Of a stretch of DNA of 64,000 nucleotides, positions 1 to 64,000 are shown piece after piece. The stretch covers positions 1 to 64,000 of IMG/VR virus record IMGVR_UViG_3300050120_000012; one strand, 5' to 3'. The translations under genes and the position numbers were made by a program. The DNA is from a virus. The notes under the pieces were generated by a model that was given only the letters and a program-made list of their open reading frames with translations, ran no database searches and was not told where the DNA came from. Every line of letters starts with the position of its first letter. Positions within the stretch are counted from its first letter, which is position 1.

Positions 1-345
1 GTGATCGCTGCGCAGAAGAAGGCCATGTCCGACGTGGTGGCCGCCACCAGCCCGCCCGCACCCGCTGCGGCGGCTCTGGCCCTCGCCACGACCGAACTGG
101 ACGGCGCAGTCGTCGGACAGCCCTACACCGGCTCCCTGTCGATCTCCGGGGGCACAGCGCCCTATACGGTGAGCGCCAGCGCCGACGTGGACAACGGCGT
201 CGAGATCGACTCCACCGGCTCTGTGACCGGCACGCCCGAAAACGCGGTGGAGACCACCTTCACCGTGACCGTGACCGACTCCGCCACGCCGCCCGCCGAA
301 GTGTCCGGCGAAGTGACGATGACCACGGCTGCGGCGTCCGCCTAA
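1..345 (+). CDS. Ig-like domain protein, C-terminal part (5' end outside window)
   Basis: The reading frame is open from base 1 and ends at TAA 343-345, so the true start probably lies upstream; the GTG at base 1 may be internal. The visible 114 residues are an Ala/Pro-rich linker followed by one Ig-like domain of the 'putative Ig' (He_PIG) type, recognisable from GQPYTGSLSISGGTAPYTV and the later TGTPENAVETTFTVTVTD. Such domains decorate phage capsids and tails and are thought to give weak surface binding. It is the only rightward gene at the left edge and is followed at once by a strong terminator. I am sure of the fold type but not of the specific role. Confidence 0.7.
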   Translation: MIAAQKKAMSDVVAATSPPAPAAAALALATTELDGAVVGQPYTGSLSISGGTAPYTVSASADVDNGVEIDSTGSVTGTPENAVETTFTVTVTDSATPPAEVSGEVTMTTAAASA

Positions 346-1450: not shown

Positions 1451-1735
1451 CTAATGCAAGTCTTGGCCGGTTCGGAGCATTTCCAGTTGCAGCTTGTAGC
1501 CCTCCGCCTCCAGTTGGGCGGCCTTGAGAAGACCATGAAGAGCTAGGATCGCGTGATAGTTCTCGAATAGAGTTTTCGCGATCAGGATCATGGTATCCCT
1601 CAAACCGGCCAAGCGCATCAATGGAGATTGCGCTTTGACCACGATAGCAAGGATCATGCGGCGGACGATTACATCATCCACCGTATTAAGGTCTTCTTCA
1701 GTCATCTTCAGGAACTCCGTACCATTGATAGACAT
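1451..1735 (-). CDS. Small helical protein, unknown
   Basis: 94 residues from ATG 1733-1735, overlapping the end of the TOPRIM gene by 38 bases. The sequence is predominantly alpha-helical (DVIVRRMILAIVVKAQ, LMRLAGLRDTMILIAKTLFE) with no membrane segment of convincing length and no motif I recognise. The order of genes suggests co-transcription and possibly a partner role for the TopoVI-A-like protein upstream. An in-frame start further upstream (to 1825) would lie almost wholly inside the neighbouring gene and is less likely. Confidence 0.6.
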   Translation of the reverse strand: MSINGTEFLKMTEEDLNTVDDVIVRRMILAIVVKAQSPLMRLAGLRDTMILIAKTLFENYHAILALHGLLKAAQLEAEGYKLQLEMLRTGQDLH

Positions 1736-2684
1736 CTCTCGGTTCAGGCGGTCCCTTCGGAGCAAGGGTGTCCACCAAAGCCTTGATCTCAGACCGTTGC
1801 TGATCTCGCTCTTCGACTCTGGCATCCCAAGCTTCCTGATCTCTGATCGCTAGGACGTTATCACGGATCAGGCTTTCGGTGATAGTCGGGTCCAGAGCGT
1901 CTAGCTCCCACACATCATTGCCGAAGCTTTCCTTGTATTTGCCGGTGCGGCTATCACCCTTCTTCGCTGGCATTGGTGGAGGGTTATGCTCTTCCACCTG
2001 ATCCATGTTGAGCGCCAGACGGTTAAACTCCACAGCAAAACCGCCAAACATCCATAGGCGGGTTTCATTGTCTCGGGTCATGTCCATGCCGGACGGATCA
2101 TGATCTCCCAAGTGGAAGATGATAGGTTCGTATCCATCCTTCTTCCATCCGCGTAACGTCATCCCTAGACGCCATTGCGCAGACTGCGACATATATCCAC
2201 GACAGGCGAAGTAGGGAACCTCCAGTTCGTTGCAGACGCCTTCGATGACGCCGATCAAGGCGTCCTTTTCGATCAGCACAAGCGGACGAACCTTTTGGTT
2301 CTTCCACATATCCACATTCCAACTATCCGCCGCGCCCTTGAGGAACGGAAGGTACTTGTCGGTCTCAGACCACTTCTGATCTGAAGCTGGAATCCACGGA
2401 TCGTCTTGGAAGCCCATCTCGCGCATGTACCGCGTGTTATCCCCGATGGAATACCAATCGACTAGACCGGCGATGCGAGCCTTGGACAGTGTATCGCCAA
2501 GCCGCTTGTATTCTTGGATGGTGTTTCGCTCGACAAGCTTGCGGGCGACGAACTGATAGTAGAGCGAGCGCAGCGTCAGAGCGAAACCCTTGGCCGCGTA
2601 TTCTGCGATGATGGCGTTCGCCTGATCGATTTGCTTTTGAACCGGCTTAGTGAACCGCTTCTTCTCATACATGATGTAGGGCAT
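1698..2684 (-). CDS. Topoisomerase VI-A / Spo11-like TOPRIM protein
   Basis: 328 residues. Residues 37-45 (TLRSLYYQF) resemble the 5Y-CAP winged-helix motif carrying the catalytic tyrosine of TopoVI-A/Spo11, where Arg-x-x-Tyr-Tyr is typical. Residues 134-200 form a TOPRIM domain: a hydrophobic strand ending IEK (Glu139), then CRGYMS at 161-166, then GDHDPSG (193-199) as the DxD metal site. In TopoVI and Spo11 these two domains cleave and re-join DNA with magnesium. The C-terminal 110 residues are charged and helical. No TopoVI-B-like GHKL ATPase partner is visible in the window. The start gives a TAATG junction with the upstream gene. Family assignment is by motif; topoisomerase or nuclease activity is inference. 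Confidence 0.72.
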   Translation of the reverse strand: MPYIMYEKKRFTKPVQKQIDQANAIIAEYAAKGFALTLRSLYYQFVARKLVERNTIQEYKRLGDTLSKARIAGLVDWYSIGDNTRYMREMGFQDDPWIPASDQKWSETDKYLPFLKGAADSWNVDMWKNQKVRPLVLIEKDALIGVIEGVCNELEVPYFACRGYMSQSAQWRLGMTLRGWKKDGYEPIIFHLGDHDPSGMDMTRDNETRLWMFGGFAVEFNRLALNMDQVEEHNPPPMPAKKGDSRTGKYKESFGNDVWELDALDPTITESLIRDNVLAIRDQEAWDARVEERDQQRSEIKALVDTLAPKGPPEPRDVYQWYGVPEDD

Positions 2685-3013
2685 TACTTCGCTTCCCCGG
2701 TAAGGACTAGACCGATCTCGCGGTGCATGTCCTTCGTCATCCGACTGATCTTGTTCTCCAGATCACGGATGGGAATGTGATGACGCTTACGGACTTCTTC
2801 AGCCTTGATGATCCGCGCCTTGGCTTCCTCCAGCGTCTTCGCTCGCCCGGCGAGGTTTTGCTTGGTGAAGGCCACACCGCCGAGATCGCCATCCCGGACG
2901 CCGCCGATCTGATTATCCGACTCAGATGTCACCCGGAGGATTTCATAGGGGCCTTTGGATTGGCGCATGAAGTCTGTCTTCATGATCCCATAAAACAGAG
3001 TGGGCTTTGCCAT
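2684..3013 (-). CDS. Hypothetical protein upstream of TopoVI-A-like gene
   Basis: 109 residues, ATG at 3011-3013; its stop shares a base with the TOPRIM gene start (TAATG), so translation is probably coupled. The N-terminal half has alternating strands (MAKPTLFYGIMKTDF; PYEILRVTSE) and the C-terminal half is a long charged helix (EEAKARIIKAEEVRKRHHIP...IRDLENKISRMTKDM) likely to form a coiled coil. I do not recognise the family. Tight coupling makes it a candidate partner of the TopoVI-A-like protein. Confidence 0.68.
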   Translation of the reverse strand: MAKPTLFYGIMKTDFMRQSKGPYEILRVTSESDNQIGGVRDGDLGGVAFTKQNLAGRAKTLEEAKARIIKAEEVRKRHHIPIRDLENKISRMTKDMHREIGLVLTGEAK

Positions 3014-52036: not shown

Positions 52037-52279
52037 ATGCCCCTGTCCCTCGCCGTCGCCTACGCCCCCGGTATCGTGAAAGCGGTCATAGGGGCGCACG
52101 ACTCCGAAGAGACGGAGGGCATGTTCCTCAAGCAAGAATCGAATCTAACGCCAGATCAAGCGCGGAAGTGGGCCGGGCTTTTGCTAGAAGCTGCGGATCA
52201 AGCCGAAGGGTCTCAGCAACCCAAGCTCGCGCTCCATGGGGGTTCCGAAGAACTGCATAGAGTTCGGAGCGACCCATAG
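52037..52279 (+). CDS. Small protein at the end of the late region
   Basis: 80 residues from ATG 52037-52039 with AAGGA upstream. Helical N-terminus with apolar residues (LSLAVAYAPGIVKAVIGA), then a charged helix (LTPDQARKWAGLLLEAADQA). Its last 150 bases overlap the 3' end of the leftward nuclease-like gene on the opposite strand. I do not recognise it. Confidence 0.58.
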   Translation: MPLSLAVAYAPGIVKAVIGAHDSEETEGMFLKQESNLTPDQARKWAGLLLEAADQAEGSQQPKLALHGGSEELHRVRSDP

Positions 52280-52670
52280 GGGTTATCGGCACAGTCTTAT
52301 ATGAGAGTTCTCTGAGAAACGCGGTCTTGGCCGTGCCGATCCTCTCCATCGCCATCGCGAGCGCACCGGGGATCATATAGATTTCCGTGAACCCTTGGAT
52401 CATGATCCAAGACGTTCCACCTACTTCCCAACGCTTAGCCGCCCACTCGCGTTGCCCGACTTGGAACTTGAGCCTACCACCTTCGTTCGGTTTGCCGATG
52501 TAGGTCCGGTCCCGTAGAACTTTGAGTTCGATATGGAAGTGATGCTCAAATAGTTGGCCTTCAACGTCCGGCGTGCTAAGCGCGACGACATTCTCGACTC
52601 TCTCCATGTGAAGGCCAGCCATCGGGAGCTTGCCTTTGAACCACTTCCACAGCGCCGATTCATTTGCCAT
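52128..52670 (-). CDS. PD-(D/E)XK nuclease-like protein
   Basis: 180 residues from ATG 52668-52670. ESALWKWFKGKL at the N-terminus, then STPDVEGQLFEHHFHIELKV and later FQVGQREWAAKRWEVGGTSW, place an Asp (in PDVEG), a Glu-x-Lys (IELK) and a Gln-x-x-Trp in the order of Holliday-junction or VRR-NUC-type PD-(D/E)XK nucleases. It would cleave branched or viral DNA. The 3' end overlaps a rightward gene by 152 bases. Family call by motif. Confidence 0.66.
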   Translation of the reverse strand: MANESALWKWFKGKLPMAGLHMERVENVVALSTPDVEGQLFEHHFHIELKVLRDRTYIGKPNEGGRLKFQVGQREWAAKRWEVGGTSWIMIQGFTEIYMIPGALAMAMERIGTAKTAFLRELSYKTVPITPMGRSELYAVLRNPHGARAWVAETLRLDPQLLAKARPTSALDLALDSILA

Positions 52671-52869
52671 TGGGTGCGACCTTCGCTCCTAGTTTGATGG
52701 TCTCTTTCGATGAAGAGACCGGCGCTCTGTCGTCCGTACCCATAGGCCCGTCGTATGGCGCGAGATAGACCCCATGGCCGGGTTTGGCGGAGGTCTCTTT
52801 GACGATCACCGTGTGGCCGCGCACAGGCTGGCGCATGGCCTCCCTGATCTCTGCGACCGTCCGGCCCAT
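52660..52869 (-). CDS. Small hypothetical protein
   Basis: 69 residues from ATG 52867-52869, next to the upstream TAG. A helix (TVAEIREAMRQPVRGHTVIV) then a Gly/Pro-rich disordered part. It overlaps the nuclease-like gene by 11 bases. No family recognised. Confidence 0.6.
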   Translation of the reverse strand: MGRTVAEIREAMRQPVRGHTVIVKETSAKPGHGVYLAPYDGPMGTDDRAPVSSSKETIKLGAKVAPNGK

Positions 52870-53514
52870 CTAGGCGATCTCCGGGGCTCTGGCGAGGGCT
52901 GCGATGGCCTCCGCCTTGGCTTGGGGCGTGCAGCCGGTCCACGGCTCCAGAGGACGCCCCGGAGCGGGTCTGGCGCGATCTGGCGGCACTTGGAAGGCCA
53001 CGTCATAGATGAAGCCGTACAGCGCCTTGGTGGTGACGCCGCCACGCTCGAAATCGTTGTCCAGCGCGAAGTCCGGCACGACGGTTTCAACGGCGTGATC
53101 GGAGGCGACTCGCGGCTCCCGACCCGGCACGATCAGCTTGAACACCTTGCCGCCGAGTTCGTGGATCGCTTCGACTTCGTTGGGATAGCGGACATCATCC
53201 ACGATCACGAACTTCATCTTCAGCGCCTTCAGCCCGAAGTGTCCGACCCAAAACTGAGGGTGCATGGTCTCGCGGCCCCAAAGCCCTCCCAAGGTCTCCA
53301 TCGCAAAGCGTGGTGAGCGACCCATGAGAAGGTCATGCGGTTGTTCCTTCTTCACTGGATCGCGAAGGGTTTCCTCCGGGATGCCAAGCGCCATGACCAT
53401 AGCTCTGATTGGGTCTGCGAAGCTCGCCCGCTTGAAGCCGTGGTTCTGGAGAAACCAATCTGAGACCGTTGTCTTACCCGATCCGACGAAGCCGCTGATT
53501 CCGATGATGACCAT
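52870..53514 (-). CDS. Deoxynucleoside monophosphate kinase-like protein
   Basis: 214 residues, ATG 53512-53514 after the leader CTCACAGGGAATCAC. The N-terminus IIGISGFVGSGKTTVSDWFL is a P-loop (GFVGSGKTT at 7-15) followed by FADPIRAMVMALGI and RETMHPQFWV, typical of phage dNMP kinases (T4 gp1 and relatives). IVDDVRYPNEVEAIHELGG is the Walker B/acceptor part. It supplies dNDPs for viral DNA synthesis. The last 40 residues are Pro/Ala-rich. Confidence 0.83.
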   Translation of the reverse strand: MVIIGISGFVGSGKTTVSDWFLQNHGFKRASFADPIRAMVMALGIPEETLRDPVKKEQPHDLLMGRSPRFAMETLGGLWGRETMHPQFWVGHFGLKALKMKFVIVDDVRYPNEVEAIHELGGKVFKLIVPGREPRVASDHAVETVVPDFALDNDFERGGVTTKALYGFIYDVAFQVPPDRARPAPGRPLEPWTGCTPQAKAEAIAALARAPEIA

Positions 53515-53529
53515 GTGATTCCCTGTGAG

Positions 53530-53880
53530 TTAGAATGGTAGCGCGATCTCAACCTCTGAGTAGGTGTTCGCCCGGCGATCCCACTTGAGCATCTTGAGCT
53601 TGTCGTCGGGCGATAGCCGATTGGCCGCCGCCAGAACAGCTTGCGCGCACAGGATAGCATCACCGGACGGCAATATGAAGTCGTCCTTTGTGAAGTCCGC
53701 CAGCTTCTTCTCCAAAAGCTTTTCGACGTTCCCACCCCAATCCTGTTCGACGATGTTCCACGTCGGGATCAGAACAAAGATGGGTCCGAACACCACAGCG
53801 GAATCGTAGTTATGGACGGTCATCGCCCCACTATCACGATCCTTACGCATGTGCTGTTGAACGATGAATACTCTGGACAT
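53530..53880 (-). CDS. Hypothetical protein
   Basis: 116 residues from ATG 53878-53880, one base past the helicase stop. The first half is strand-rich (VHNYDSAVVFGPIFVLIPTW), then helices (EKLLEKKLADFTKDDFILPS; ILCAQAVLAAANRLSPDDKL) and a final strand ending ALPF. No motif recognised; its position suggests a role with the helicase. Confidence 0.62.
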   Translation of the reverse strand: MSRVFIVQQHMRKDRDSGAMTVHNYDSAVVFGPIFVLIPTWNIVEQDWGGNVEKLLEKKLADFTKDDFILPSGDAILCAQAVLAAANRLSPDDKLKMLKWDRRANTYSEVEIALPF

Positions 53881-53881
53881 A

Positions 53882-55390
53882 CTAACCGTCGCCAATCTCT
53901 CGTAAAAGCTCTTGAAGACCTGTTCTGCTAATGCGTTCGGAAACGTCTTCTTTGTTGCCTAACAGGTTTAGAATGTAGTCGTCATTCGCATTGTTAGCTA
54001 TGATGTCGATCAGGTCAACGGCCTTCTTTCCTAAAGCTGTGGCCCGGTCGCTCGCCTGATTGCGCTGGATCAGCGAAGGCGTATGCGAACTCCAGATCAG
54101 CGTCCCGGCAACGGACATATCAACGCCAGCGCCGCCGGACTGCGGTTGGCCGATTATACCGGCGACTTCTGGATCATCCCTCAGATCGCGGAGGTTTTGG
54201 AATTTGATCTTCTGAGAAACGCCGCCGTACATCTGGAGCATACGACGGCCAAAGCCTTCTTCGACCAAGAGTTCTTCCAACATCTCAGTCATCTTCACGA
54301 TGTCATACTTGAACCGACACCATATGATGAACTTGCTATCGGAGTTCATCGCCTCATGGATCGTCAGGAGGAATCGTGGGTTATCCTTGGGCTTGACTAG
54401 CTCATGCAGAACCTTGTTCTCATCCACTAGGAAGCCGGAACTGATCTGTTGAAACTTCAGCATGAGAGTACCGCCGTCCAAGGCTCGCCCTCCCATCACA
54501 GGTTCCTTCTTCAGCGCACGCCAGACCTTGATCTGATTATCGGTCATCTCGAAACGACGCTGCGTATCGATGGGCTTCAGAAGTCCAGCGTCCTCGCGCG
54601 TCACTACAGAGGCGTACTTCGCAATCGCCGTCTTGAGTTCTTCTTCGTTCTTCGGTCCAAGGAACTTCTGATATTTCCGATTGTTCTTTGTGGTCTTCGT
54701 CTCCCATATGCCGAAGTGATTCTTGAACGTCTCAGACGTGTCAAACCCTAGCGCGCCTTCCTCCAGTATTTCGAACTGTGAGTAAGCCTGCATCGGCGAC
54801 TCATCAATCGCCGTCCCTGATAGGATGCGTCTGAAGTTCGACGCATTACGAATGGCCTTTGTTGCGCCGGTTCTAGCAGAACCCGGTGCGCCGTATTGAT
54901 GGCTTTCATCCGCGACTAAGAAGACCTTCCCCTTGTGATACTTGAGAAAAGTCTTCAGAAAGGCGCGACACACCTTAGACGCCAACGACTCACTGTTGAC
55001 GGACAGGATCATGAGCTTATCGCGACCGCGACACACCCGCTCAAACTGCGCCATGTACGCCTTTTGCTTGGTGCGAGCGCGGTTGGCATTCCAAATCATC
55101 CCTTCCCATGGGACTTGATCTGGCATGTGCCGGGGGATTTCCTCCAGTATCCAGTTTTGGTGTGCGATGTTCGGCGCGAGGATGACGACGGCGGTGATCC
55201 GTCCGACGTGATAGTTGAAGGCGAAGGTATCGATGACCGCCTTGGACTTACCCGAACGCATTGACCACAGTAGAGCGCGAGCCGCGACGGACCTGTATTT
55301 GAAGAACTCCGTCCGCTGTGTGCTACGCGGCGGCGTCTTGAAGGTGAGTGGCCCAATAGGTTTGCGGGGCTTCGCGGCTGGCCTTTGCAC
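53882..55390 (-). CDS. SNF2-type superfamily 2 helicase
   Basis: 502 residues from GTG 55388-55390 (TAGTG junction with the polymerase stop). Motif I SMRSGKSK at 43-50, motif II DESH at 161-164, motif III SGTA at 191-194; the C-terminal helicase half has FIIWCRFKYDIVKM, GGAGVDMSVAGTLIWSS and QRNQASDRATALGKK. A double-strand DNA translocase or helicase of the kind encoded beside phage polymerases. Family call secure. Confidence 0.9.
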   Translation of the reverse strand: MQRPAAKPRKPIGPLTFKTPPRSTQRTEFFKYRSVAARALLWSMRSGKSKAVIDTFAFNYHVGRITAVVILAPNIAHQNWILEEIPRHMPDQVPWEGMIWNANRARTKQKAYMAQFERVCRGRDKLMILSVNSESLASKVCRAFLKTFLKYHKGKVFLVADESHQYGAPGSARTGATKAIRNASNFRRILSGTAIDESPMQAYSQFEILEEGALGFDTSETFKNHFGIWETKTTKNNRKYQKFLGPKNEEELKTAIAKYASVVTREDAGLLKPIDTQRRFEMTDNQIKVWRALKKEPVMGGRALDGGTLMLKFQQISSGFLVDENKVLHELVKPKDNPRFLLTIHEAMNSDSKFIIWCRFKYDIVKMTEMLEELLVEEGFGRRMLQMYGGVSQKIKFQNLRDLRDDPEVAGIIGQPQSGGAGVDMSVAGTLIWSSHTPSLIQRNQASDRATALGKKAVDLIDIIANNANDDYILNLLGNKEDVSERISRTGLQELLREIGDG

Positions 55391-57567
55391 TACTTACGAT
55401 ACCGGAGCATGGCTGCGCCTTCGGCGGCGATGGGGAAGCCTCTGCCCCAATTCGGAAGGTGACACATGAGATCGCATAGAAGCTGCGCAGCGGCTTTGCT
55501 TCCACCTAATGCTTCGACGCGGACGATCTCCAGCGCCGTGACTAGCTCATCGTGGACGGTAAGTAGAAGCTCGAATTGACCATGACGCTTTACGACCCGC
55601 ATAGCGTGCGCCATAAGATCGCGACACAAAGCCTGTACGATGTTCTCGACTAGCTTTCCCCCGTAGGTGTAGCTCCGATCCCACTTCTTCGTGAAGCTGT
55701 TGATCTCCATGTACGAGATCGCCAGCTTCCTCGACTTCGTGTATGTGACCTTGCCTGTCACTTCGTCCACGTCTTCCCATACGCGCTCCGTCCATTCCAG
55801 CTTGGGATAGGGATAGGGGATCAGCCTGCCCGAAGGCAACTGGCAAAACAGGAAGCGCCCGGCGCGCTTATAGGCAATGTGCGAATTGACGCGGACTACC
55901 GATCCGGGGTTCTGCATCGCCTCGATAGCTGCGCCCTCACAGGCGTACCAAAAGGCTTTGACCGGCGCATGACGCTCACGATAGCCAAGGATGCCTTTCT
56001 TGGCCGTGTCTAGGTCAATGATGATCTTCGATTGAGCGCAGTAGTCAATGAACTTCGGAGGGCCTAGCTGATACCCTGCGCCCAAGATGATTTGCTTGCC
56101 GAACTGGCGTTCATCGGCCCAACGGATAGACGGGGCTTTGTTCTTCTTATCTTCATCGAACTCGCGTTTGATCGTCGCGTAGTCGAGATTGTTTACGAAG
56201 GCCGCCATCTCCAGATAGGAGTCGATGCCCTGATTGAATAGCTCTACGCCGTCGTGGTGATCGCAGACCCAAAACAGACCGCGTGCTTCCACGGATGAAT
56301 AGTCGGCGGTGACAAGCATCTTATCTTTGCCGGGCAGGATCGCACCACGCAACGCGCCAGAGAAGACGCTGTAGAGATCGTCATACTCTTCTTCTAGTTC
56401 CTCTGCGTCCAAGTTCATAAGAGCAAAGACGGTATCGTCCATGTTCTTAATCTTGCCACGCGGAAGGTTCTGCGGCTGGATGCCTACTCCCGCCCACCGG
56501 GACGTGCGAGATGCACCGGCATACATGAGAACGTCTCTACACCGCCCGTCGTCAGACGCACGGTATCGAATGGTCTTATATTTTGCTGTTGATGCGCGAC
56601 CAGCCATACGCACACGACTAACAACGCCGTGTATATGGTCTGGAAGGAAATCATCTTCCAAGAGCGCGTCGAGAGTAGCAGCCTGCGTATTGGGAAGTTC
56701 AAAGCCATTTTCTAGCATCCATTCTTTGAGTTGATTTCGCGCTGTGACTTTCGGGACTTTCCCGTCAGTTAGACGCTGTATCTCTTCTTCATACTTCCCC
56801 CGAAGGTATGCCAAGGTCTCCATTGCCTTATCGACAAGTTCAAGGTCGATAGGGATGCCGCGTTCGTTGATCTCCTGATCGATCAGCCAAATCTCTTGCT
56901 CGACCGGCGATAGATCAGGGAGGGATTGACTGAACCGCTCTTCAGCGAGAACGTCCTTCCGGCAATAGACGATCAGACGCTTGATAGATGTCGCGTCTTG
57001 AACCCATCGCTCGGGTTGCTTCTTCGTCGCCTTCTTCGGACGACACATGGTCATCATGAGCTTGTGACCTTCCTTGTCCTTCTGGACAGGGAGGTTCATG
57101 ATCTCACAGCACTTCTCCAGACCACGCGGGAGACTGTACGATGCAGCCTTGGCCGCCGAACATCTCCATTGCACGTCTGGAATGTCGGGCCAGAACTCAG
57201 GGACTAGCTTGCTGCGCCAGACGGCGCGTTCGAACATGGCATTGTGGGCTTCAACGACTCCGCCATCTTCGATCCACTTGCATAGATCGGCTGGCGGCGG
57301 CATCCGTGGGACGCCACAGATGTCCGCGATCCAATCGGGAACCCACACCGCTGTCTTGCCCTCGGGCCAGAAGGGCAGGCGGTAGCAGAGGCACATGACC
57401 TGTGTGGAGTCGTCCGACGCATAGCGCCAAGCGCCGGACTTCTTTAGATCGATCCGCGACCTTGTTTCGAAGTCGATAGTGGCGCGTTGAAGACGTGTTT
57501 TTGCTGGAGGCTTCGGCTTGCGAACCTCTACTCCGGGACCGCCAATGGTTCCGAGATCAAAAGCCAT
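55390..57567 (-). CDS. Family A DNA polymerase with 3'-5' exonuclease domain
   Basis: 725 residues from ATG 57565-57567. The N-terminal exonuclease starts with DFE (32-34) in TIDFETRSRIDLKKSGAW and continues to a KDVLAEE near 204-210. The polymerase has motif A ADYSSVEARG (421-430), motif B RQFGKQIILGAGYQ (487-500) and motif C VHDEL (671-675). The exonuclease lacks the 5'-3' domain of cellular Pol I, as normal in phages. This is the replicative enzyme; TAATG joins it to the GapR-like gene. Confidence 0.95.
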   Translation of the reverse strand: MAFDLGTIGGPGVEVRKPKPPAKTRLQRATIDFETRSRIDLKKSGAWRYASDDSTQVMCLCYRLPFWPEGKTAVWVPDWIADICGVPRMPPPADLCKWIEDGGVVEAHNAMFERAVWRSKLVPEFWPDIPDVQWRCSAAKAASYSLPRGLEKCCEIMNLPVQKDKEGHKLMMTMCRPKKATKKQPERWVQDATSIKRLIVYCRKDVLAEERFSQSLPDLSPVEQEIWLIDQEINERGIPIDLELVDKAMETLAYLRGKYEEEIQRLTDGKVPKVTARNQLKEWMLENGFELPNTQAATLDALLEDDFLPDHIHGVVSRVRMAGRASTAKYKTIRYRASDDGRCRDVLMYAGASRTSRWAGVGIQPQNLPRGKIKNMDDTVFALMNLDAEELEEEYDDLYSVFSGALRGAILPGKDKMLVTADYSSVEARGLFWVCDHHDGVELFNQGIDSYLEMAAFVNNLDYATIKREFDEDKKNKAPSIRWADERQFGKQIILGAGYQLGPPKFIDYCAQSKIIIDLDTAKKGILGYRERHAPVKAFWYACEGAAIEAMQNPGSVVRVNSHIAYKRAGRFLFCQLPSGRLIPYPYPKLEWTERVWEDVDEVTGKVTYTKSRKLAISYMEINSFTKKWDRSYTYGGKLVENIVQALCRDLMAHAMRVVKRHGQFELLLTVHDELVTALEIVRVEALGGSKAAAQLLCDLMCHLPNWGRGFPIAAEGAAMLRYRK

Positions 57568-57920
57568 TACTTATCAGACGGAGCGATCATCTCAAGCGCG
57601 GCTTCATAGAGTTCGATCAGCGCCTCTTCTTCCTGACGCTTGGCCTTGTCTTGCTTCCGGCGCGCGATGACCTTGCGCATGATCTTCACGTCAAAGCCTT
57701 CACCCTTGGCTTCAAGGAAGACTTCCTTCTTATCGGTCTTCACCGCATCTTCGTCTTCCTGAAGACGCTCGATACGCTCGACGAAGGACTTCATCCGCGT
57801 CTGCGCCGTGGTGGACATCATATCCAGCGCCACGCCTACTTCATCGCCGTTGAATGACTCTAGGCCATTGCCGAAGTCAATGTCGCCGTCTTCGGCTTCC
57901 AAATCGAAATCACCGGCCAT
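57567..57920 (-). CDS. GapR-like (DUF2312) chromatin protein
   Basis: 117 residues from ATG 57918-57920, with GTGAGG acting as ribosome site. From about residue 35 on the sequence (QTRMKSFVERIERLQEDEDA; VFLEAKGEGFDVKIMRKVIA; RRKQDKAKRQEEEALIELYE) is the DUF2312 signature; its best-known member, Caulobacter GapR, forms a coiled-coil clamp on overtwisted DNA and stimulates topoisomerases. The N-terminal 30 residues are an added acidic/aromatic segment (AGDFDLEAEDGDIDFGNG) close to the shared tail motif. It is directly upstream of the polymerase gene. Confidence 0.88.
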   Translation of the reverse strand: MAGDFDLEAEDGDIDFGNGLESFNGDEVGVALDMMSTTAQTRMKSFVERIERLQEDEDAVKTDKKEVFLEAKGEGFDVKIMRKVIARRKQDKAKRQEEEALIELYEAALEMIAPSDK

Positions 57921-57921
57921 G

Positions 57922-58491
57922 TTAGTACGCCTCACCTTGATTGGGATCGGTGATGTCGAGATAATCTCTCCAATACACCCACTTCCATTGCATCGTCGGA
58001 TTGTTGACCCGGCTTACGATGACTTCGCCGGTATCGTCTTGATAGTTCGCGGGTGGACACCAAAAGCCCCAATCCCGCTCGCGCTCGCCACGGAAGATCA
58101 GGGTGAGGACCGTCCGGGTATGCAGCCGCGTGATCCTGTGAGCGTGCTGTGGCCGCCTCGCACGGTAGCTGAGCCACCGGAGGGTGTCAGGGATCAGGAG
58201 GCCGCTAGGCGGGTTCTCCAGCCCATTGTTCGTCTGCGCCACAAGCGACTCCTGCGGCTCATGGGACACTTCATCGTACCCACCGTAAAGGATCAGCGTG
58301 CGAAAGCTCCACGGATGATCGTGGAAGACGCGATCAGCGTCCGGTCGATAGAATTTGTGGAGATAGATGCGGAGCTTGAAAGGCCACCACTTCCACGGCG
58401 TCAGGTGCGTCCGTACAAGATAGGGTTGGCCGTTTGTGTCGATCCATTCGACGTACATGCCAAGCGGTAATTGCTTAGTACGGATACCCAT
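57922..58491 (-). CDS. Cupin-like protein
   Basis: 189 residues from ATG 58489-58491 with the leader TTCACAGAGGTTCACATG. RVFHDHPWSFRTLILYGGYD provides His-x-His and the strand-turn typical of cupins, and HAHRITRLH later supplies more His residues. The centre could bind a metal and an organic ligand. Known small phage cupins are poorly characterised. A cytoplasmic enzyme acting on nucleotides or sugars is possible. Confidence 0.6.
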   Translation of the reverse strand: MGIRTKQLPLGMYVEWIDTNGQPYLVRTHLTPWKWWPFKLRIYLHKFYRPDADRVFHDHPWSFRTLILYGGYDEVSHEPQESLVAQTNNGLENPPSGLLIPDTLRWLSYRARRPQHAHRITRLHTRTVLTLIFRGERERDWGFWCPPANYQDDTGEVIVSRVNNPTMQWKWVYWRDYLDITDPNQGEAY

Positions 58492-58514
58492 GTGAACCTC
58501 TGTGAAGGGAAGGT

Positions 58515-58538
58515 GGAACCCGGCCTAGACCGGGTTCC
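58515..58538. other. 24-bp CTAG-centred palindrome
   Basis: GGAACCCGG-CCTAGA-CCGGGTTCC, perfect apart from the one central G-T type pair. It lies between the SSB-like gene and the cupin-like gene and may act as attenuator or protein site. It has no T run in the minus direction. Confidence 0.65.
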
Positions 58539-58550
58539 TTTAGCCTCAGA

Positions 58551-59192
58551 CTAGAACTGAACGTCGTCATCTCCGAAGGCGTCACCGCCCGCGTCGTCGC
58601 CGAAGCTGATCTCGTCTTCGCCCAAGTCGGTGAAGTCGTTCTCCGCGTCCGGCCCTTGATTGCCGAACTTCTCGCCGTCACCGATGAAGATGAGGTTGTG
58701 CAGATTGACCGCAACGCCCTTGGACTTATTGTCGAAGCTCCAGAACGACACGGAAGCTCGGGCGTAGCAGCCCGCGTAGAACTTGCTCCAGTCGATCTTG
58801 GTCTTCGCGCCGCCGATCATCTGGATCATGCCGGGCGGGGTTTTGTTCCCCATCCGAATGAACGTGACGCCTGCGCCGTAGCCGTCTTTGTCCGGCTTCT
58901 CCATGCCGTCGCGGAACGGCATCTTGTACGCCGGAAGAATCTTCCGGTCGGCCCCGAACGCTTTGTCGCCGAACTTCTCCCGGAGGGAGGCCACGGCGGC
59001 TTGACGCATCTTCTTCCACCGCTCCGCATCTTGCGGTGTGAAAGACGTAGCCGTGAAGAGGCCGGTCACGCCATACTTGGGATCGCTGGCGGAACCTTCC
59101 ATCTTGGACGGCTTATCGAGGTTGGGATAGGACGTTCGGAAGATCGGAGTGGTGATCGTGACCTGAACGGCTTTCTCGGCTGCATCAGCCAT
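58551..59192 (-). CDS. ssb: Single-stranded DNA-binding protein, DUF2815 (Enc34-like)
   Basis: 213 residues from ATG 59190-59192 with AAAGGAC upstream; the longer frame is discarded. The order FRTSYPNLDKPSKME, KFGDKAFGADRKILPAYKMP, then KFYAGCYARASVSFWSFDNK and GVAVNLHNLIFIGDGEKFG fits DUF2815, an OB-fold SSB family in phages. The C-terminal 30 residues are acidic (DFTDLGEDEISFGDDAGGDA) and end GDDDVQF, like the SSB docking tip. It coats single strands at the fork. Next to DUF2800 and helicase genes, as in other phages. Confidence 0.87.
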   Translation of the reverse strand: MADAAEKAVQVTITTPIFRTSYPNLDKPSKMEGSASDPKYGVTGLFTATSFTPQDAERWKKMRQAAVASLREKFGDKAFGADRKILPAYKMPFRDGMEKPDKDGYGAGVTFIRMGNKTPPGMIQMIGGAKTKIDWSKFYAGCYARASVSFWSFDNKSKGVAVNLHNLIFIGDGEKFGNQGPDAENDFTDLGEDEISFGDDAGGDAFGDDDVQF

Positions 59193-59262
59193 GAGGGTAG
59201 TCCTTTCTAACGTGTTAGCGTTTGAGCGTTTTAATGGCCCCATGAGGGAGCCGGGATCGACG

Positions 59263-59613
59263 CTACCGGACTCTGCGCACGTTGGCAATAGCGCGTTCGA
59301 TATTGGTGAGATTCGGAATGCGCTTGCGTTGGAAGACTTCACGCCAGAACGGAGGGACTTTTGTGTGGTCTCCAGAAGAACGGGCATAGATCAGTTGGGT
59401 AGCGGTCTGGCGCACGATTACTGCATCCATTCCAGCGATGTCGCAGATGTCCCTATACTCGTCTTGGGCTTCTATGAACCAAGCGCGAGCTTCATTTACA
59501 CAACGGCGATGTTCTTCTTTGTCGTGCGGTAAGTTGGTGAAGCCGAGGGCATCGCAGAGCGCCCGGTATATGACTTGCTGACAAACCGGACGCCACTCTT
59601 CAACGATGTCCAT
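59263..59613 (-). CDS. Hypothetical protein
   Basis: 116 residues from ATG 59611-59613; the context TTAACCATGG, without a clear ribosome site, is shared with the small terminase start. An alternative ATG is at 59658, overlapping the upstream gene by 16 bases. Helical, Cys-containing (WRPVCQQVIYRALCDALGFT; VNEARAWFIEAQDEYRDICD). No family recognised. Confidence 0.6.
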   Translation of the reverse strand: MDIVEEWRPVCQQVIYRALCDALGFTNLPHDKEEHRRCVNEARAWFIEAQDEYRDICDIAGMDAVIVRQTATQLIYARSSGDHTKVPPFWREVFQRKRIPNLTNIERAIANVRRVR

Positions 59614-59642
59614 GGTTAACGGACATAGCAGGGAGTTCGGGG

Positions 59643-61226
59643 TTAGAGAATATCCCATTCGTCGGCGTCGGGTGCGGCGAGTAGCAGCGGTTCCCCGTCG
59701 TCCACGACACTGAAGTCCGCGTCGATAATGCCAAGCTCTTCGTCGCCCAAGTCACTGAACGGATTGATCTCGATTGCAGGACGCGCGTCGGTGATCGGAA
59801 CTAGGGTGAGCTTACCTTCCGGGTGGAAGGACAGTTGGGCCACAAGGTCTTTACCGATCTCGGGTATCTTCTCCAGTTGAGCCGGTGTCTTGCACTTCGG
59901 CTCTTTGAAGATGTCCTTATCTGGAATACCCATGTTGCGCAGACGCTTGATCGTGTCCGCTTCATTCTTCAGCTTTCGATTAGACCGCTTGCGGACGATC
60001 TTCTGGCCTTCGATGGCATAGCCGTTTTCAGCCTCATGCTGAGCGTAGGCTTGAACGTCGCGGATCATGGCGTCCAGCACAGGTGCGAGACGGAGGATGG
60101 TGAGCATCCGCTGGCGATCTCCGATGACGCTGGCGACCATCTTCTTCGATAGGTTCTCACCGGCTTCTGATAGCACTTGCTTGACACCTTTCTGAATGAC
60201 GAACTCTTCGTCGCCTAAGTCTGTGAAGTCCTGCAAAGCAAGCGACTGAGCTTGGTCGAATAAGGCGGGACAAGGCTTCGCCTTACCATTGCAGAAGAAG
60301 CATTGGACTTCGCCGGGGACTAGCGGCGCATCCGGGTCTTCGGTCGCTATTGCAGCTTCAATGAGAGTCTTCGTGAAATCCATGACTTCATCGATAGTGT
60401 AGTCCCACGTTCTAATAGGACCGTCTCTGTGAGCCGCGCGAGGTTGAACGATAACGGTACGGACGATCTTCGGTAAGTCCCCTCGATCTCTACATATTTC
60501 GAGGATAGCCCCAAGAGCATAATACAGAAGTTGAGGATTGAATTTAGCTTCGACGACTTTACCTCTTCCGTGCTTGTAATCAAGAACGATAAGGATTTCG
60601 CCTCTGACGAAGAAGCAATAGTCATTTGTTCCGAACATGCCGGGATAGAGGCGACTGAGATCAAATCCCTTTTCAAGGAAAATATGAACGTCGTCTTTGT
60701 CATAAGTAGCATACAGTTCCTCCGTAATGCGGGCGATCTCTAGTGTGTATTTCGCCACGGCATCGGCCATGTCTTCATCGATCTCAAAGACGATCACGTC
60801 GTCTTCTTCCTCATCCGGGTAGTCGTCGGTGAGGTTGCCTTTGATGTCGATAAACTGTCCGATGAACCAATGCGGATGAACGTCGGACGACAGTGCAAGC
60901 TCCGCTAGATGGTGAGCACACGTTCCCTCTTGAGCAAACCGGCTGGATCGGTTCGGCATCCCCTTGGACATGCGGACGGAGCCGGGACACTTCATCCATC
61001 GATCTGAGGACGACGCACCTAATACGGCGTGGACCTTGCCATCCTCTGACGTGTGGCCTTCCTTCTTCCCATGGGCTTGAGGCCCTAGCACGGATAGCAG
61101 CGTCGGAACCCGATTTTCCAGCCCCATCTCCGCAACGATGTCGTCGAAGTTTATATGGGGATTGGCGATCAGAGTTGTGACCTTGGCGATCACCTTCTCT
61201 TTGTTCTTCGCTGCGAAGTCGATCAT
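59643..61226 (-). CDS. DUF2800 (Cas4/RecB-like) nuclease
   Basis: 527 residues, ATGA junction with the helicase gene. HAVLGASSSDRWMKCPGSVR near 65-85 is the DUF2800 opening signature; LIVLDYKHGRGKVVEAKFNP near 210-230 has the Asp-x-Lys of the PD-(D/E)XK core, and QCFFCNGKAKPCPALFDQ near 305 the Fe-S/zinc-type cysteines. Family members work with DUF2815 SSBs in phage DNA processing. Repeats of 'FTDLGDEEF' and 'FSDLGDEEL' precede the end PDADEWDIL, one of the shared tails. Confidence 0.85.
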   Translation of the reverse strand: MIDFAAKNKEKVIAKVTTLIANPHINFDDIVAEMGLENRVPTLLSVLGPQAHGKKEGHTSEDGKVHAVLGASSSDRWMKCPGSVRMSKGMPNRSSRFAQEGTCAHHLAELALSSDVHPHWFIGQFIDIKGNLTDDYPDEEEDDVIVFEIDEDMADAVAKYTLEIARITEELYATYDKDDVHIFLEKGFDLSRLYPGMFGTNDYCFFVRGEILIVLDYKHGRGKVVEAKFNPQLLYYALGAILEICRDRGDLPKIVRTVIVQPRAAHRDGPIRTWDYTIDEVMDFTKTLIEAAIATEDPDAPLVPGEVQCFFCNGKAKPCPALFDQAQSLALQDFTDLGDEEFVIQKGVKQVLSEAGENLSKKMVASVIGDRQRMLTILRLAPVLDAMIRDVQAYAQHEAENGYAIEGQKIVRKRSNRKLKNEADTIKRLRNMGIPDKDIFKEPKCKTPAQLEKIPEIGKDLVAQLSFHPEGKLTLVPITDARPAIEINPFSDLGDEELGIIDADFSVVDDGEPLLLAAPDADEWDIL

Positions 61227-62485
61227 CCAGCTTGCTCTTTACGAACTATGGTGATGCGCTCCGCAAAGCGGGTGACGCCGGTATAGAGCCAATTCGGGTA
61301 TTGGTGATCGGAACGGCTCCATTCATCAATTAGCACGCCGTTCTTCCATTGGGAACCTTGACTCTTGTGGACGGTGATAGCGGAGCCGTAGGTCATCACA
61401 AGGCCCTCCGGGTTTCCGGTGAGCATCGGTGTCCAGAACTTCATATGATGCGTCGTCCCTTCAAGGAACGGCATGACGTGAACCATGACTCCAGTGAGCC
61501 GTTCTCCACGCATATCCAAGCTCTGGAGATCGCACCTGTAATACTTATGTGGACCGCGCTCGACGAACTCGGCGCGAAGGACTTTCCACATGCCGCCGTT
61601 CATGACGCCGACTTCATAGTTGTTCTGGAGACAGATGAGCTTTTCACCTTCCTCCAGAACCTTCGTCCGCTTGAGCATCTTGCGAAACGCATGATTGACG
61701 GCGATCCGCGTTGCATTCTTCCCGCAAAGGATTTGCTCATACTCGGCGTACTCCGCCGGGCGCAGCGACTTCACGATCCGGCTGTCACCAAGCGAGCCGT
61801 AGGGCAGGGTGAGCGCCCGGCCTCCGCCATCCATGTCCTTCGGGCGGATGGCTGTGGCGAGGCGCAGGACCGGGTTTCCGGCGGCCTGACGGTGGATATG
61901 GCGCAGGAGGACATCGGGCTTGGCGTTGGTGAAGAAGCCCTCCCCGGCGATGGGCTTAAGCTGCGCCGGATCACCTAGCACGATCACCGGGAAGCCGTAG
62001 CGCAGCATCGATTCGCCGATGAACTTGTCCACCATCGAAACTTCGTCACAGGCGAAAGCCATGTCACGTGGGAACTCAGACAAGTCCTTCGGGATGAAGA
62101 TTGGGGAGTTGAGCGATTGCTTCGAAGTCTCTAACTTGCGGCCAAGGGTGTCCTTCTCAGGACCGGCTTCCATCGCTTCCCATGTGTCGAGTTGATCCTT
62201 GTATTCCTTCACGGCTGTACCGCGCGGAACGAAGATCGTCTTGTGGATCGTGGCGGCGTTCACGCAACCCTTGGACGCCAGCACTAGGGCGGCTTTCCCG
62301 GTATATGCCATGAACTGGATACGAAGCTTGGATCGCTTGGCGATCTCTTGAGCTAAGGTTGTCTTACCCGTCCCGGCGTAGCCGAAGATACGGAAGACTT
62401 CTTTGCGGTTGAACTCAAAGTTGTCGAGATAGTTGACGCCCTGTTCGATGGCGTTGACTTGCTCGGGTGTGAAACCACCGTCCAT
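61223..62485 (-). CDS. RecD/Dda-like superfamily 1B helicase
   Basis: 420 residues from ATG 62483-62485. Walker A GYAGTGKTT at 35-43, Walker B CDEVSM at 146-151, motif III GDPAQLKPI at 171-179, motif V TVHKSQGSQW at 371-380 and motif VI YTGVTRFAE at 401-409. This is a 5'-3' helicase of the RecD2/Dda type, used in replication start or recombination. Upstream is the promoter at 62528-62556. Confidence 0.92.
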   Translation of the reverse strand: MDGGFTPEQVNAIEQGVNYLDNFEFNRKEVFRIFGYAGTGKTTLAQEIAKRSKLRIQFMAYTGKAALVLASKGCVNAATIHKTIFVPRGTAVKEYKDQLDTWEAMEAGPEKDTLGRKLETSKQSLNSPIFIPKDLSEFPRDMAFACDEVSMVDKFIGESMLRYGFPVIVLGDPAQLKPIAGEGFFTNAKPDVLLRHIHRQAAGNPVLRLATAIRPKDMDGGGRALTLPYGSLGDSRIVKSLRPAEYAEYEQILCGKNATRIAVNHAFRKMLKRTKVLEEGEKLICLQNNYEVGVMNGGMWKVLRAEFVERGPHKYYRCDLQSLDMRGERLTGVMVHVMPFLEGTTHHMKFWTPMLTGNPEGLVMTYGSAITVHKSQGSQWKNGVLIDEWSRSDHQYPNWLYTGVTRFAERITIVRKEQAG

Positions 62486-62527
62486 GTGATGCCGATCATA
62501 TTAGCGTTTTATCATGTTAGGGTAGCA

Positions 62528-62556
62528 GGCTTAGACCATCTGGAGAGCCCGGTCAA
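62528..62556 (-). promoter_or_regulatory. Leftward promoter of the replication block
   Basis: Minus-strand TTGACC (62551-62556), 17-base spacer, TAAGCC (62528-62533), 43 bases before the RecD-like start. Box spacing and TAAGC match the main leftward promoter at 18926-18954. Confidence 0.58.
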
Positions 62557-62578
62557 GACACGGCCTAGACCGGGCTCT
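62544..62578. other. CTAG-containing hairpin overlapping the promoter
   Basis: AGAGCCCGGTC (62544-62554) pairs perfectly over 11 bp with GACCGGGCTCT (62568-62578), and the loop side carries GGCCTAGACC. It overlaps the -35 box of the promoter at 62528-62556 and follows the upstream gene's stop by about 8 bases, so it may terminate and/or regulate. Confidence 0.6.
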
Positions 62579-62585
62579 GGATAGA

Positions 62586-63503
62586 TCAGTCAGCCGTTTT
62601 GTAGTCCGGCGCGTCGTGGCCCAATTCCTTGCGGACGGCAAGCTCGCGCTCCAGTTCGGCGTTCGTCGCCAAGCCGAGTAGCGGCCCGCGAAGCTTGTCA
62701 TCGGTATAGGTCCGCATCACCCGCGAACCATCGGCTCCGATGAATGCAAGTTGGACTTGACCGAACAGACCGTGTTCGTGTGCGCCGCCTGCATAGCTTT
62801 CCAGCCATACTTGCGAGTCATCGTCGAAATGCTCCAGCATGGAGATGCCGGGGGTTTCGGGTTGTCTGTCAGGTATGGTAGAAAAGATGCTGTTGACCGC
62901 AACTGCGTTGTCGCGGTTTTGCCTGCCACCGCCGAAGACGGACACCTTGGCGATAGCCTGATCCGCCGCGATCTGTTCGGCGAGACGATCCCGGCCTTCT
63001 TCGCTGTAGGCGTCGGCGTTGAAGTTATGCGCCGTGGCGTCCGTCACCTTGTGCCGGGCGAAGAGCTTGGCGATGTTCGCCGCCATCGCCACGTCGATCC
63101 GGGAATCGACGCCGGATAGATAGCGATTGAGATACCACAGCACGTCGCCAGCTTCTTCGACCGCGTTCTTCTGATCGAAGTGCTTGCCGTAGAACCATGC
63201 GTCGATCAACGCTTCAGCGATCTCCCCACATTCGGTCGCCATCCCGATTGTGCCGTGAATGACGGCATCCGGGATCGGCATAGGGGAGTTGAAGTCAACG
63301 TCGGTCGCTGAATGCAGCGGCGACTCAGCCGGTAGCTGGCGGCCATAGACGTAGGACTTCTTCACCGCGTCGAGAGTCTGACACGCCTTTACGACGGCGA
63401 TCAGGGCGGCGAACACTTGGCCGGGTTTGACCATCTCCAGATGAAGACGCCCTTCGGGTGGTAGCGTGCGCAGGGCTTCGCGCGAGTACGTTTCGATGTC
63501 CAT
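62586..63503 (-). CDS. MazG-like nucleotide pyrophosphohydrolase-type protein
   Basis: 305 residues from ATG 63501-63503. Residues 60-140 (HGTIGMATECGEIAEALIDA, AVEEAGDVLWYLNRYLSGVD) match the MazG-type Glu-x2-E...EExxD metal motif. Such enzymes hydrolyse (d)NTPs or (p)ppGpp-related nucleotides and are common in phages of starving hosts. The C-terminal 120 residues are a separate strand-rich part (QVWLESYAGGAHEHGLFGQV). Assignment to the superfamily is firm; substrate unknown. Confidence 0.76.
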   Translation of the reverse strand: MDIETYSREALRTLPPEGRLHLEMVKPGQVFAALIAVVKACQTLDAVKKSYVYGRQLPAESPLHSATDVDFNSPMPIPDAVIHGTIGMATECGEIAEALIDAWFYGKHFDQKNAVEEAGDVLWYLNRYLSGVDSRIDVAMAANIAKLFARHKVTDATAHNFNADAYSEEGRDRLAEQIAADQAIAKVSVFGGGRQNRDNAVAVNSIFSTIPDRQPETPGISMLEHFDDDSQVWLESYAGGAHEHGLFGQVQLAFIGADGSRVMRTYTDDKLRGPLLGLATNAELERELAVRKELGHDAPDYKTAD

Positions 63504-63516
63504 GATTGATCCATGT

Positions 63517-63545
63517 GAAAAGGGCCGCCCCGGATGGGACGGCCC
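63517..63545 (-). terminator. Terminator after the right-edge gene
   Basis: Minus-strand stem GGGCCGTCCC/GGGCGGCCC-type (63536-63545 with 63522-63530) followed by TTTTC. Near copy of the rightward terminator at 33577-33603. Confidence 0.8.
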
Positions 63546-63573
63546 TCCACTATCGCTGATTCGACGCCGATGT

Positions 63574-64000
63574 CTAGGCGCTGAAGTCGGCGTCACCTTC
63601 CTTGGCGGCGGCAGGCGCGGCGGCCTTGTCGCCAGTGGCGGCTTCGCCTTCCTTGGCCGGGGCGTCGTTCTCGGTCGGGATCATGATGACCAGCGCCTTG
63701 TCCTCGGGATAGACCTTGAACTTGGCCTTGGCCGACACGTCGAAGGGCAGGGACGCCGACATGACGTGCGCCGCCGTCTTCTTGCCCTTGCTGACGTAGC
63801 GCAGGGTGAGCGGGCCGTCGTCCGCCGGTTGGATCATGAGCTTGCCGCCCCACACCGCGCCGGTCCCCTTGACCGCCTTGACCTTGATGCCGTCGCCGAG
63901 ATCGGTGAGGCCCATGGTTTCCAGCACGTCGGAACCGATGGTGATGACCTTCTGGCCCTTCTTCAGGCTGGAGACGCGGACGCCGGTGGTCTTGCGGCCC
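63574..64000 (-). CDS. Partial gene with acidic-aromatic tail (5' end outside window)
   Basis: The frame is open to the right edge without a start, so the gene begins beyond base 64000. About 141 residues are visible. The readable part (KVITIGSDVLETMGLTDLGD; KLMIQPADDGPLTLRYVSKG; KFKVYPEDKALVIMIPTEND) is strand-rich, followed by an Ala/Glu/Lys linker and the end EGDADFSA, one of the shared tails. Family unknown; position at the head of the replication block suggests DNA metabolism. Confidence 0.66.
   Translation of the reverse strand, partial: GRKTTGVRVSSLKKGQKVITIGSDVLETMGLTDLGDGIKVKAVKGTGAVWGGKLMIQPADDGPLTLRYVSKGKKTAAHVMSASLPFDVSAKAKFKVYPEDKALVIMIPTENDAPAKEGEAATGDKAAAPAAAKEGDADFSA

What the first reader, a model, noticed from the sequence alone, without database searches (positions are those of the whole stretch)
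1698..2684. Stand-alone TopoVI-A/Spo11-like TOPRIM protein in a phage
The gene combines an LRSLYYQF motif, like the catalytic-tyrosine winged helix, with a TOPRIM domain (IEK...GDHDPSG). Known TopoVI needs a GHKL ATPase B subunit, which is not seen in 64 kb. It is tightly coupled to a coiled-coil protein (2684-3013) and a helical protein (1451-1735), which could be new partners. This could be a minimal topoisomerase, a packaging nick-maker or an anti-host nuclease, and it recalls the TOPRIM subunits of plasmid-defence systems.
Basis: partly seen in the sequence, partly recalled or inferred. Interest (0 to 1): 0.74.

Follow-up and report, generated by a model that had tools for sequence, protein, structure and literature searches.

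The report
Stand-alone phage Mini-A topoisomerase-like protein
A phage carries a small, self-standing relative of the DNA-cutting half of topoisomerase VI and of the meiotic break-maker Spo11; the family is already named (Mini-A) and common in phages, but what it does is still unknown.

Summary
The gene lies on the minus strand at 1698-2684 (328 aa). It has a Topo VI-A/Spo11 fold (AlphaFold pLDDT 89; six best PDB matches all Topo VI-A) and the Topo VI-A active-site residues: R39, Y43, E139, D194, D196, E260. No GHKL ATPase was found in the whole 71.8-kb record or in 36 other Mini-A records searched.

It is not a new kind. It matches PHROG 6247 'DNA topoisomerase' (E 3.6e-88) and is homologous to the protein of Pseudomonas phage NP1, a published Mini-A example. 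Relatives occur in 70 of 50,697 phage records.

The proposed partners are not supported: neither neighbour has a detectable relative, and across 179 loci no neighbour family recurs in more than 13. In near-identical Salmonella Chi-like phages, Mini-A alone replaces a 250-bp stretch. It is the only SPN19 gene found in three carriers and absent from two non-carriers. This argues against dedicated phage-encoded partners and an essential packaging role.

Most likely it is a homodimeric, tyrosine-based double-strand breaker/rejoiner working without its own ATPase. Cleavage and role are untested. Verdict: new member of a known kind.

The parts
1698..2684 (-). Mini-A gene, 328 aa
   Evidence: open frame; PHROG 6247 E 3.6e-88; AlphaFold model pLDDT 89.2
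2415..2657 (-). winged-helix-like N-terminal domain, residues about 10-90
   Evidence: helices 13-31, 38-47, 56-71 in the model; domain alone: best VIA match Topo VI-A 1d3y Z 7.6, tied within 1 with a winged-helix Fur protein at 6.6
2556..2558 (-). codon of Y43, candidate catalytic tyrosine (equivalent of M. mazei Y106)
   Evidence: 166 of 166 aligned members; lies in R-x-x-Y-Y as in Topo VI-A
2568..2570 (-). codon of R39, candidate clasp arginine (equivalent of M. mazei R102)
   Evidence: 165 of 166, one gap; same spacing of 4 to the tyrosine as in Topo VI-A
1839..2303 (-). TOPRIM domain, residues about 128-282
   Evidence: model and VIA matches to Topo VI-A, Spo11, JetD and MksG TOPRIM domains
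2268..2270 (-). codon of E139, TOPRIM glutamate (equivalent of E202)
   Evidence: 166 of 166
2097..2105 (-). codons D194-H195-D196, TOPRIM DxD (equivalent of D254/D256)
   Evidence: D194 and D196 166 of 166; most loci were fetched partly by a GDHDP pattern, but 17 of 17 in A1, which was not
1905..1907 (-). codon of E260, candidate clasp glutamate (equivalent of E342)
   Evidence: 166 of 166, 17 of 17 in A1; Q in two of three distant Streptomyces plasmid relatives
2684..3013 (-). upstream frame, 109 aa, one-base overlap (TAATG); orphan, not a conserved partner
1451..1735 (-). downstream frame, 94 aa; orphan, not a conserved partner

Best explanation
The gene encodes a Mini-A protein: a stand-alone version of the Topo VI-A/Spo11 cleavage subunit. 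Inferred mechanism: two copies form a dimer across a bent duplex; in each, Y43 attacks one strand with metal held by E139/D194/D196 of the partner's TOPRIM, giving a protein-bridged double-strand break with 5'-phosphotyrosine ends that can be resealed. R39-E260 is the likely equivalent of the Topo VI R102-E342 clasp that holds the tyrosine away from DNA until needed. With no GHKL subunit the opening signal is probably DNA shape (bend, crossing, supercoil) rather than ATP. It is a self-contained accessory gene that most likely acts on phage DNA during replication or recombination. Shown here: family, fold model, conserved active-site residues, absence of a B subunit, lack of conserved or co-varying phage partners. 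Inferred: dimer, covalent cleavage, rejoining, trigger, role.
For: PHROG 6247 'DNA topoisomerase' E 3.6e-88. Homologous to NP1 (39.6% over 90%), the phage whose Mini-A is drawn in a review figure (passages). AlphaFold pLDDT 89.2, pTM 0.84; Foldseek ranks 1-6 all Topo VI-A (E 2.3e-6 to 4.5e-5), rank 7 Spo11 (E 0.02); VIA Z 11.1 to 1d3y over 232 residues at 5.2 A. M. mazei active-site residues from PMC13040014 (passages) have the same spacings in 20 of 20 archaeal Topo VI-A and matching residues in Mini-A. No GHKL in own record or 36 of 36 others. Chi-like cassette swap: same junctions in 6 of 6 carrier/non-carrier comparisons; only SPN19 gene of 72 that tracks carriage.
Against: No activity was measured. 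Sequence profiles do not join Mini-A to archaeal Topo VI-A significantly (hhalign E 0.043 and 0.046, only 28-29 columns around the YY motif). Pfam, NCBIfam, PADLOC and phmmer on PDB give nothing for P0001. Full-length structural fits are loose (Topo VI-A rmsd 4.0-5.3 A, 10-13% identity). The N-terminal domain alone has no significant Foldseek match (1d3y E 8.8) and its VIA Z of 7.6 is middling. The E260 = E342 equivalence rests on motif and order, not on coordinates, and the DxD-to-E spacing differs (66 against 88). Host-encoded partners are not excluded.
Confidence: 0.6

Rival explanations
1. Mini-A is a cleavage subunit that borrows a host ATPase or other host partner, so it works as a hybrid topoisomerase or nuclease.
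For: Topo VI-A needs B to pivot the winged helices (PMC13040014, passages); a clasp-like pair is conserved, which suggests that some trigger exists; a host partner would leave no mark in phage gene order.
Against: Copies occur in phages of Proteobacteria, Actinobacteria, Bacteroidetes, Firmicutes and cyanobacteria and in MAG contigs labelled archaeal, so one shared host partner would have to be very widespread. No partner was identified.
Confidence: 0.2
2. It is a nuclease aimed at host or competing phage/plasmid DNA, like the TOPRIM subunits JetD/MksG, without rejoining.
For: TOPRIM matches JetD 7til and MksG 8b7f (Z 10.0 each); it is an accessory gene in Chi-like phages.
Against: JetD and MksG align over 134-137 residues only, while Topo VI-A aligns over 223-237 including the N-terminal domain. 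PADLOC models do not match it. It often lies among replication and nucleotide genes. No target evidence.
Confidence: 0.17
3. It is a packaging nick-maker.
Against: Among Chi-like phages no SPN19 protein but Mini-A separates the three carriers from both non-carriers, terminase included. Siskin, a non-carrier, has an annotated cos end. Copies also occur on plasmids.
Confidence: 0.03

Closest known systems
Mini-A (for example Pseudomonas phage NP1; PHROG 6247 'DNA topoisomerase')
   Same: Direct homology over 83-95% of the protein in the listed phage records, stand-alone, virus-borne, truncated Topo VI-A-like
   Different: Nothing found that sets it apart; 33-51% identity to 165 other members, with a C-terminal tail of its own
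DNA topoisomerase VI subunit A
   Same: Winged helix plus TOPRIM; R-x-x-Y-Y, E, DxD and E residues in the same order
   Different: No B subunit, shorter, no significant sequence-profile match
Spo11
   Same: Same fold class (8urq Foldseek E 0.02, VIA Z 9.1)
   Different: No Spo11-type partner found; viral
Topo VIII
   Same: Mobile-element type IIB family related to Mini-A (reviews)
   Different: Topo VIII carries B-type sequence; none here
JetD / MksG (Wadjet, MksBEFG nuclease)
   Same: TOPRIM domain (VIA Z 10.0)
   Different: Alignment limited to the TOPRIM part; no PADLOC match

Membership tests
Mini-A | Homology to a protein named Mini-A in print (Pseudomonas phage NP1) | tested here: met
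   NP1 records 39.6% identity over 90% of P0001, E 5e-61; NP1 named in a figure legend of PMC7614492 (passages)
Mini-A | Topo VI-A-like winged helix plus TOPRIM | tested here: met
   N-terminal domain alone is weaker
Mini-A | No B (GHKL) subunit, fused or separate | tested here: met
   0 of 1 own record; 0 of 36 other Mini-A records, chosen by me from the 98 loci then held
Mini-A | Carried by viruses and mobile elements | tested here: met
   70 of 50,697 phage records; 44 of 72,556 plasmid records
Mini-A | Place inside the Mini-A clade of the original tree (Takahashi et al. 2020) | not tested
   Paper not held; no tree built
Topo VI | B subunit with GHKL ATPase and transducer | tested here: not met
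Topo VI | Pfam TP6A_N (PF04406) match | tested here: not met
   P0001 no Pfam family at E<=1; 1 of 17 members of A1 at best E 0.064
Topo VIII | B-type ATPase part, usually fused | tested here: not met
   328-aa protein without it
JetD/MksG (Wadjet) | Match to the defence-library models | tested here: not met
   0 PADLOC families for P0001 at E<=1
JetD/MksG (Wadjet) | SMC-type JetABC genes in the same locus | not tested
   No SMC family search was run on this record
Type IIB enzymes in general | 5'-phosphotyrosine double-strand cleavage | not testable with these tools
   Needs a biochemical assay

The most novel reading that the evidence does not exclude
Mini-A is a complete, ATP-free type IIB break-and-rejoin enzyme that moves between phages as a single gene. 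It keeps the Topo VI clasp pair (R39/E260) although it has no ATPase to open it, so DNA shape alone would release the tyrosine. Distant Streptomyces plasmid relatives with Q in place of E260 would be natural versions of the cleavage-prone E342Q mutant.
Probability: 0.3. Interest if true: 0.6.

Novelty: new member of a known kind. Interest (0 to 1): 0.33.

Why it matters
Mini-A proteins are named and common, but a review states that their function is unknown (PMC8084294, passage). If they cut and rejoin DNA without an ATPase or partner, they would be the simplest type IIB enzymes and a model for how the Spo11/Topo VI module is controlled. The Chi-like pairs with and without the gene, and the clasp residues, make this directly testable.

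Tried and rejected
Partner genes: rejected. The two neighbours have no relatives by tblastn in phages, by pattern scan in IMG/VR (51 and 15 pattern matches, none confirmed), or in the other 98 loci then held (best E 1.6). Clustering of all frames in 179 loci found no neighbour family in more than 13, and none adjacent more than 6 times (single linkage, loci of unequal length).

Sequence-profile link to Topo VI-A: tried with 79 and 166 Mini-A rows against 20 archaeal Topo VI-A; local E 0.043 and 0.046, global alignment meaningless. It aligns the YY motif only; I rest the relation on structure.

PDB by sequence: phmmer 0 matches; profile search 3 matches at E 0.2-0.63, all unrelated. Viral structure library: only one match under E 0.001, an unnamed 152-residue protein. 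Topo VI-A profile in six Mini-A-bearing genomes: 0 of 6.

The 84-aa gp26 that sits in place of Mini-A in iEPS5 is not a Mini-A remnant (no convincing similarity).

Papers: no functional study of Mini-A seen in the search listings for Mini-A, Spo11/phage, Pam3, Chi-like and Nipunavirus terms; the library holds open-licence papers only, and the founding paper is not held.

Full report
What is there. The 1698-2684 frame is on the minus strand and encodes 328 aa. It matches one PHROG family, 6247 'DNA topoisomerase', E 3.6e-88 over residues 5-306. Pfam, NCBIfam, PADLOC and phmmer on PDB sequences find nothing for it. tblastn finds relatives in 70 of 50,697 phage records, each covering at least 80% at under 60% identity; many are annotated 'DNA topoisomerase' and one 'DNA topoisomerase VI'. 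Plasmids: 44 of 72,556 records, 35 of them Streptomyces. GTDB genomes: 224 of 263 stretches.

Fold. An AlphaFold model from 79 sequences has pLDDT 89.2 and pTM 0.84. Foldseek against PDB gives six matches under E 0.001, all Topo VI-A chains; Spo11 is seventh at E 0.02. VIA-align gives 1d3y Z 11.1 (232 residues, 5.2 A), other Topo VI-A chains Z 9.2-10.4 (223-237 residues, 4.0-5.3 A), Spo11 Z 9.1 (212 residues, 4.8 A); JetD and MksG reach Z 10.0 but over 134-137 residues, that is the TOPRIM part. The N-terminal domain predicted alone (pLDDT 85.1) has no significant Foldseek match; by VIA its best row is again Topo VI-A 1d3y (Z 7.6, 82 residues, 4.6 A), with winged-helix proteins such as Fur close behind at 6.6. 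These Z values are middling, so the domain alone is weak evidence and the full-length match carries the claim.

Active site. PMC13040014 (passages read) gives the M. mazei Topo VI-A residues: Y106 catalytic, E202/D254/D256 metal site, and R102-E342, a clasp that restrains the tyrosine; E342Q makes the enzyme cleavage-prone. In 20 of 20 archaeal Topo VI-A genes the spacings R-Y 4, Y-E 96, Y-D 148 and D-E 88 agree with those numbers, so E342 is the E of the AEQQAF motif. Mini-A has R39, Y43, E139, D194, D196 and E260 (in WELDAL) in the same order, with R-Y 4 and Y-E 96, but Y-D 151 and D-E 66. In 166 distinct sequences Y43, E139, D194, D196 and E260 are 166 of 166; R39 is 165 with one gap; Y42 is Y in 160 (13 of 178 other loci dropped: 11 duplicates, 2 short frames). 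Caution: most of these loci were fetched with patterns that include GDHDP or WELDA, so those positions are partly fixed by the search. The 17 sequences of A1 were not fetched with those motifs, and all six residues are invariant there. In three Streptomyces plasmid relatives (23-30% identity) R39, Y43, E139, D194 and D196 are kept; E260 is E in one and Q in two. Sequence profiles do not link Mini-A to Topo VI-A significantly (E 0.043, YY region only). The clasp equivalence is therefore an inference from motif and order, not from coordinates.

No B subunit. HATPase_c, HATPase_c_3, Topo-VIb transducer and type IIA cleavage-subunit profiles give 0 matches at E<=10 in the whole 71,812-bp record. 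Its first and last 187 bases are 98.9% identical, so it is probably complete. In 36 other Mini-A records, chosen by me as the longer or annotated ones among 98 loci, 0 of 36 have either HATPase profile at E<=0.1, while all 14 control genomes ring.

Partners. The 109-aa upstream frame overlaps the Mini-A start by one base (TAATG) and the 94-aa downstream frame overlaps its end. Neither has a relative in phages, IMG/VR or beside the other copies. Over 179 loci the commonest neighbour family occurs in 13, and no family is adjacent more than 6 times. Annotated neighbours often include helicases, polymerases, exonucleases, thymidylate synthase and nucleotide genes.

A natural experiment. The region downstream of Mini-A in Salmonella phage SPN19 matches 115 phage records (92 of them over at least 80%), but the Mini-A DNA matches only 6 records, which are three phages deposited twice. 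A protein search adds at most one clear candidate, Serratia phage Smarc5 at 77% identity, whose place among the 115 I did not check. In all 6 comparisons of three carriers with two non-carriers (iEPS5, Siskin) similarity stops 7 bases before the Mini-A ATG and resumes at the last base of its stop codon; the non-carriers have 250 other bases there, holding most of an 84-aa unrelated frame found in 76 records. Of 72 SPN19 proteins, Mini-A is the only one found in the other two carriers and in neither non-carrier. So the unit that comes and goes is Mini-A alone. This makes a dedicated phage-encoded partner and an essential packaging role unlikely; a host partner remains possible. Five genomes are few, and a partner shared by all five would be missed.

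What is known. Reviews (passages only) describe Mini-A as a type IIB member close to Topo VIII, mainly on mobile elements (PMC8185306), as a Topo VI-A/Spo11 homologue in viruses (PMC11302465), of unknown function (PMC8084294), and as truncated Top6A homologues in archaeoviruses and bacteriophages, with Pseudomonas phage NP1 as the figure example (PMC7614492). NP1 is among the tblastn matches (39.6% over 90%). PMC7472734 (passage) lists a DNA topoisomerase as a feature of Nipunavirus, the genus of carrier JG054. The founding paper was not available.

Verdict. Observation confirmed; a new member of a known kind. The most likely mechanism is tyrosine-mediated, protein-bridged double-strand breakage by a dimer without its own ATPase, acting on phage DNA. 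The family and fold are well supported; cleavage, rejoining, trigger and role are inferred.

Noticed in passing
window 1-187 and record end (L008): The first 187 bases of the 71,812-bp record match its last 187 with 2 mismatches, so the phage genome is probably complete.
   Followed up: partly
L216, L217 (Streptomyces plasmids): Distant Mini-A relatives have Q at the position of E260, the same change that makes M. mazei Topo VI-A cleavage-prone.
   Followed up: partly
L201 8473-8727: An 84-aa frame of unknown function takes the place of Mini-A in many Chi-like phages (76 records); not related to Mini-A.
   Followed up: partly
L015 6001-6911; L078 3703-3795: Mini-A frame is broken in two pieces in Roseobacter phage RDJL Phi 1 and after 31 aa in L078: decay or sequencing error.
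   Followed up: no
window 52128-63596 and L008 2757-8723: Replication set resembling that of Chi-like phages: Gp2.5-like ssDNA-binding protein, DUF2800 protein, family A polymerase, helicases, primase, thymidylate synthase, ribonucleotide reductase.
   Followed up: partly
L019 2056-3501: Bacteroides phage BKO1-3 has a gene annotated SMC-like a few kb upstream of its Mini-A; whether it is more than a recombination ATPase was not tested.
   Followed up: no
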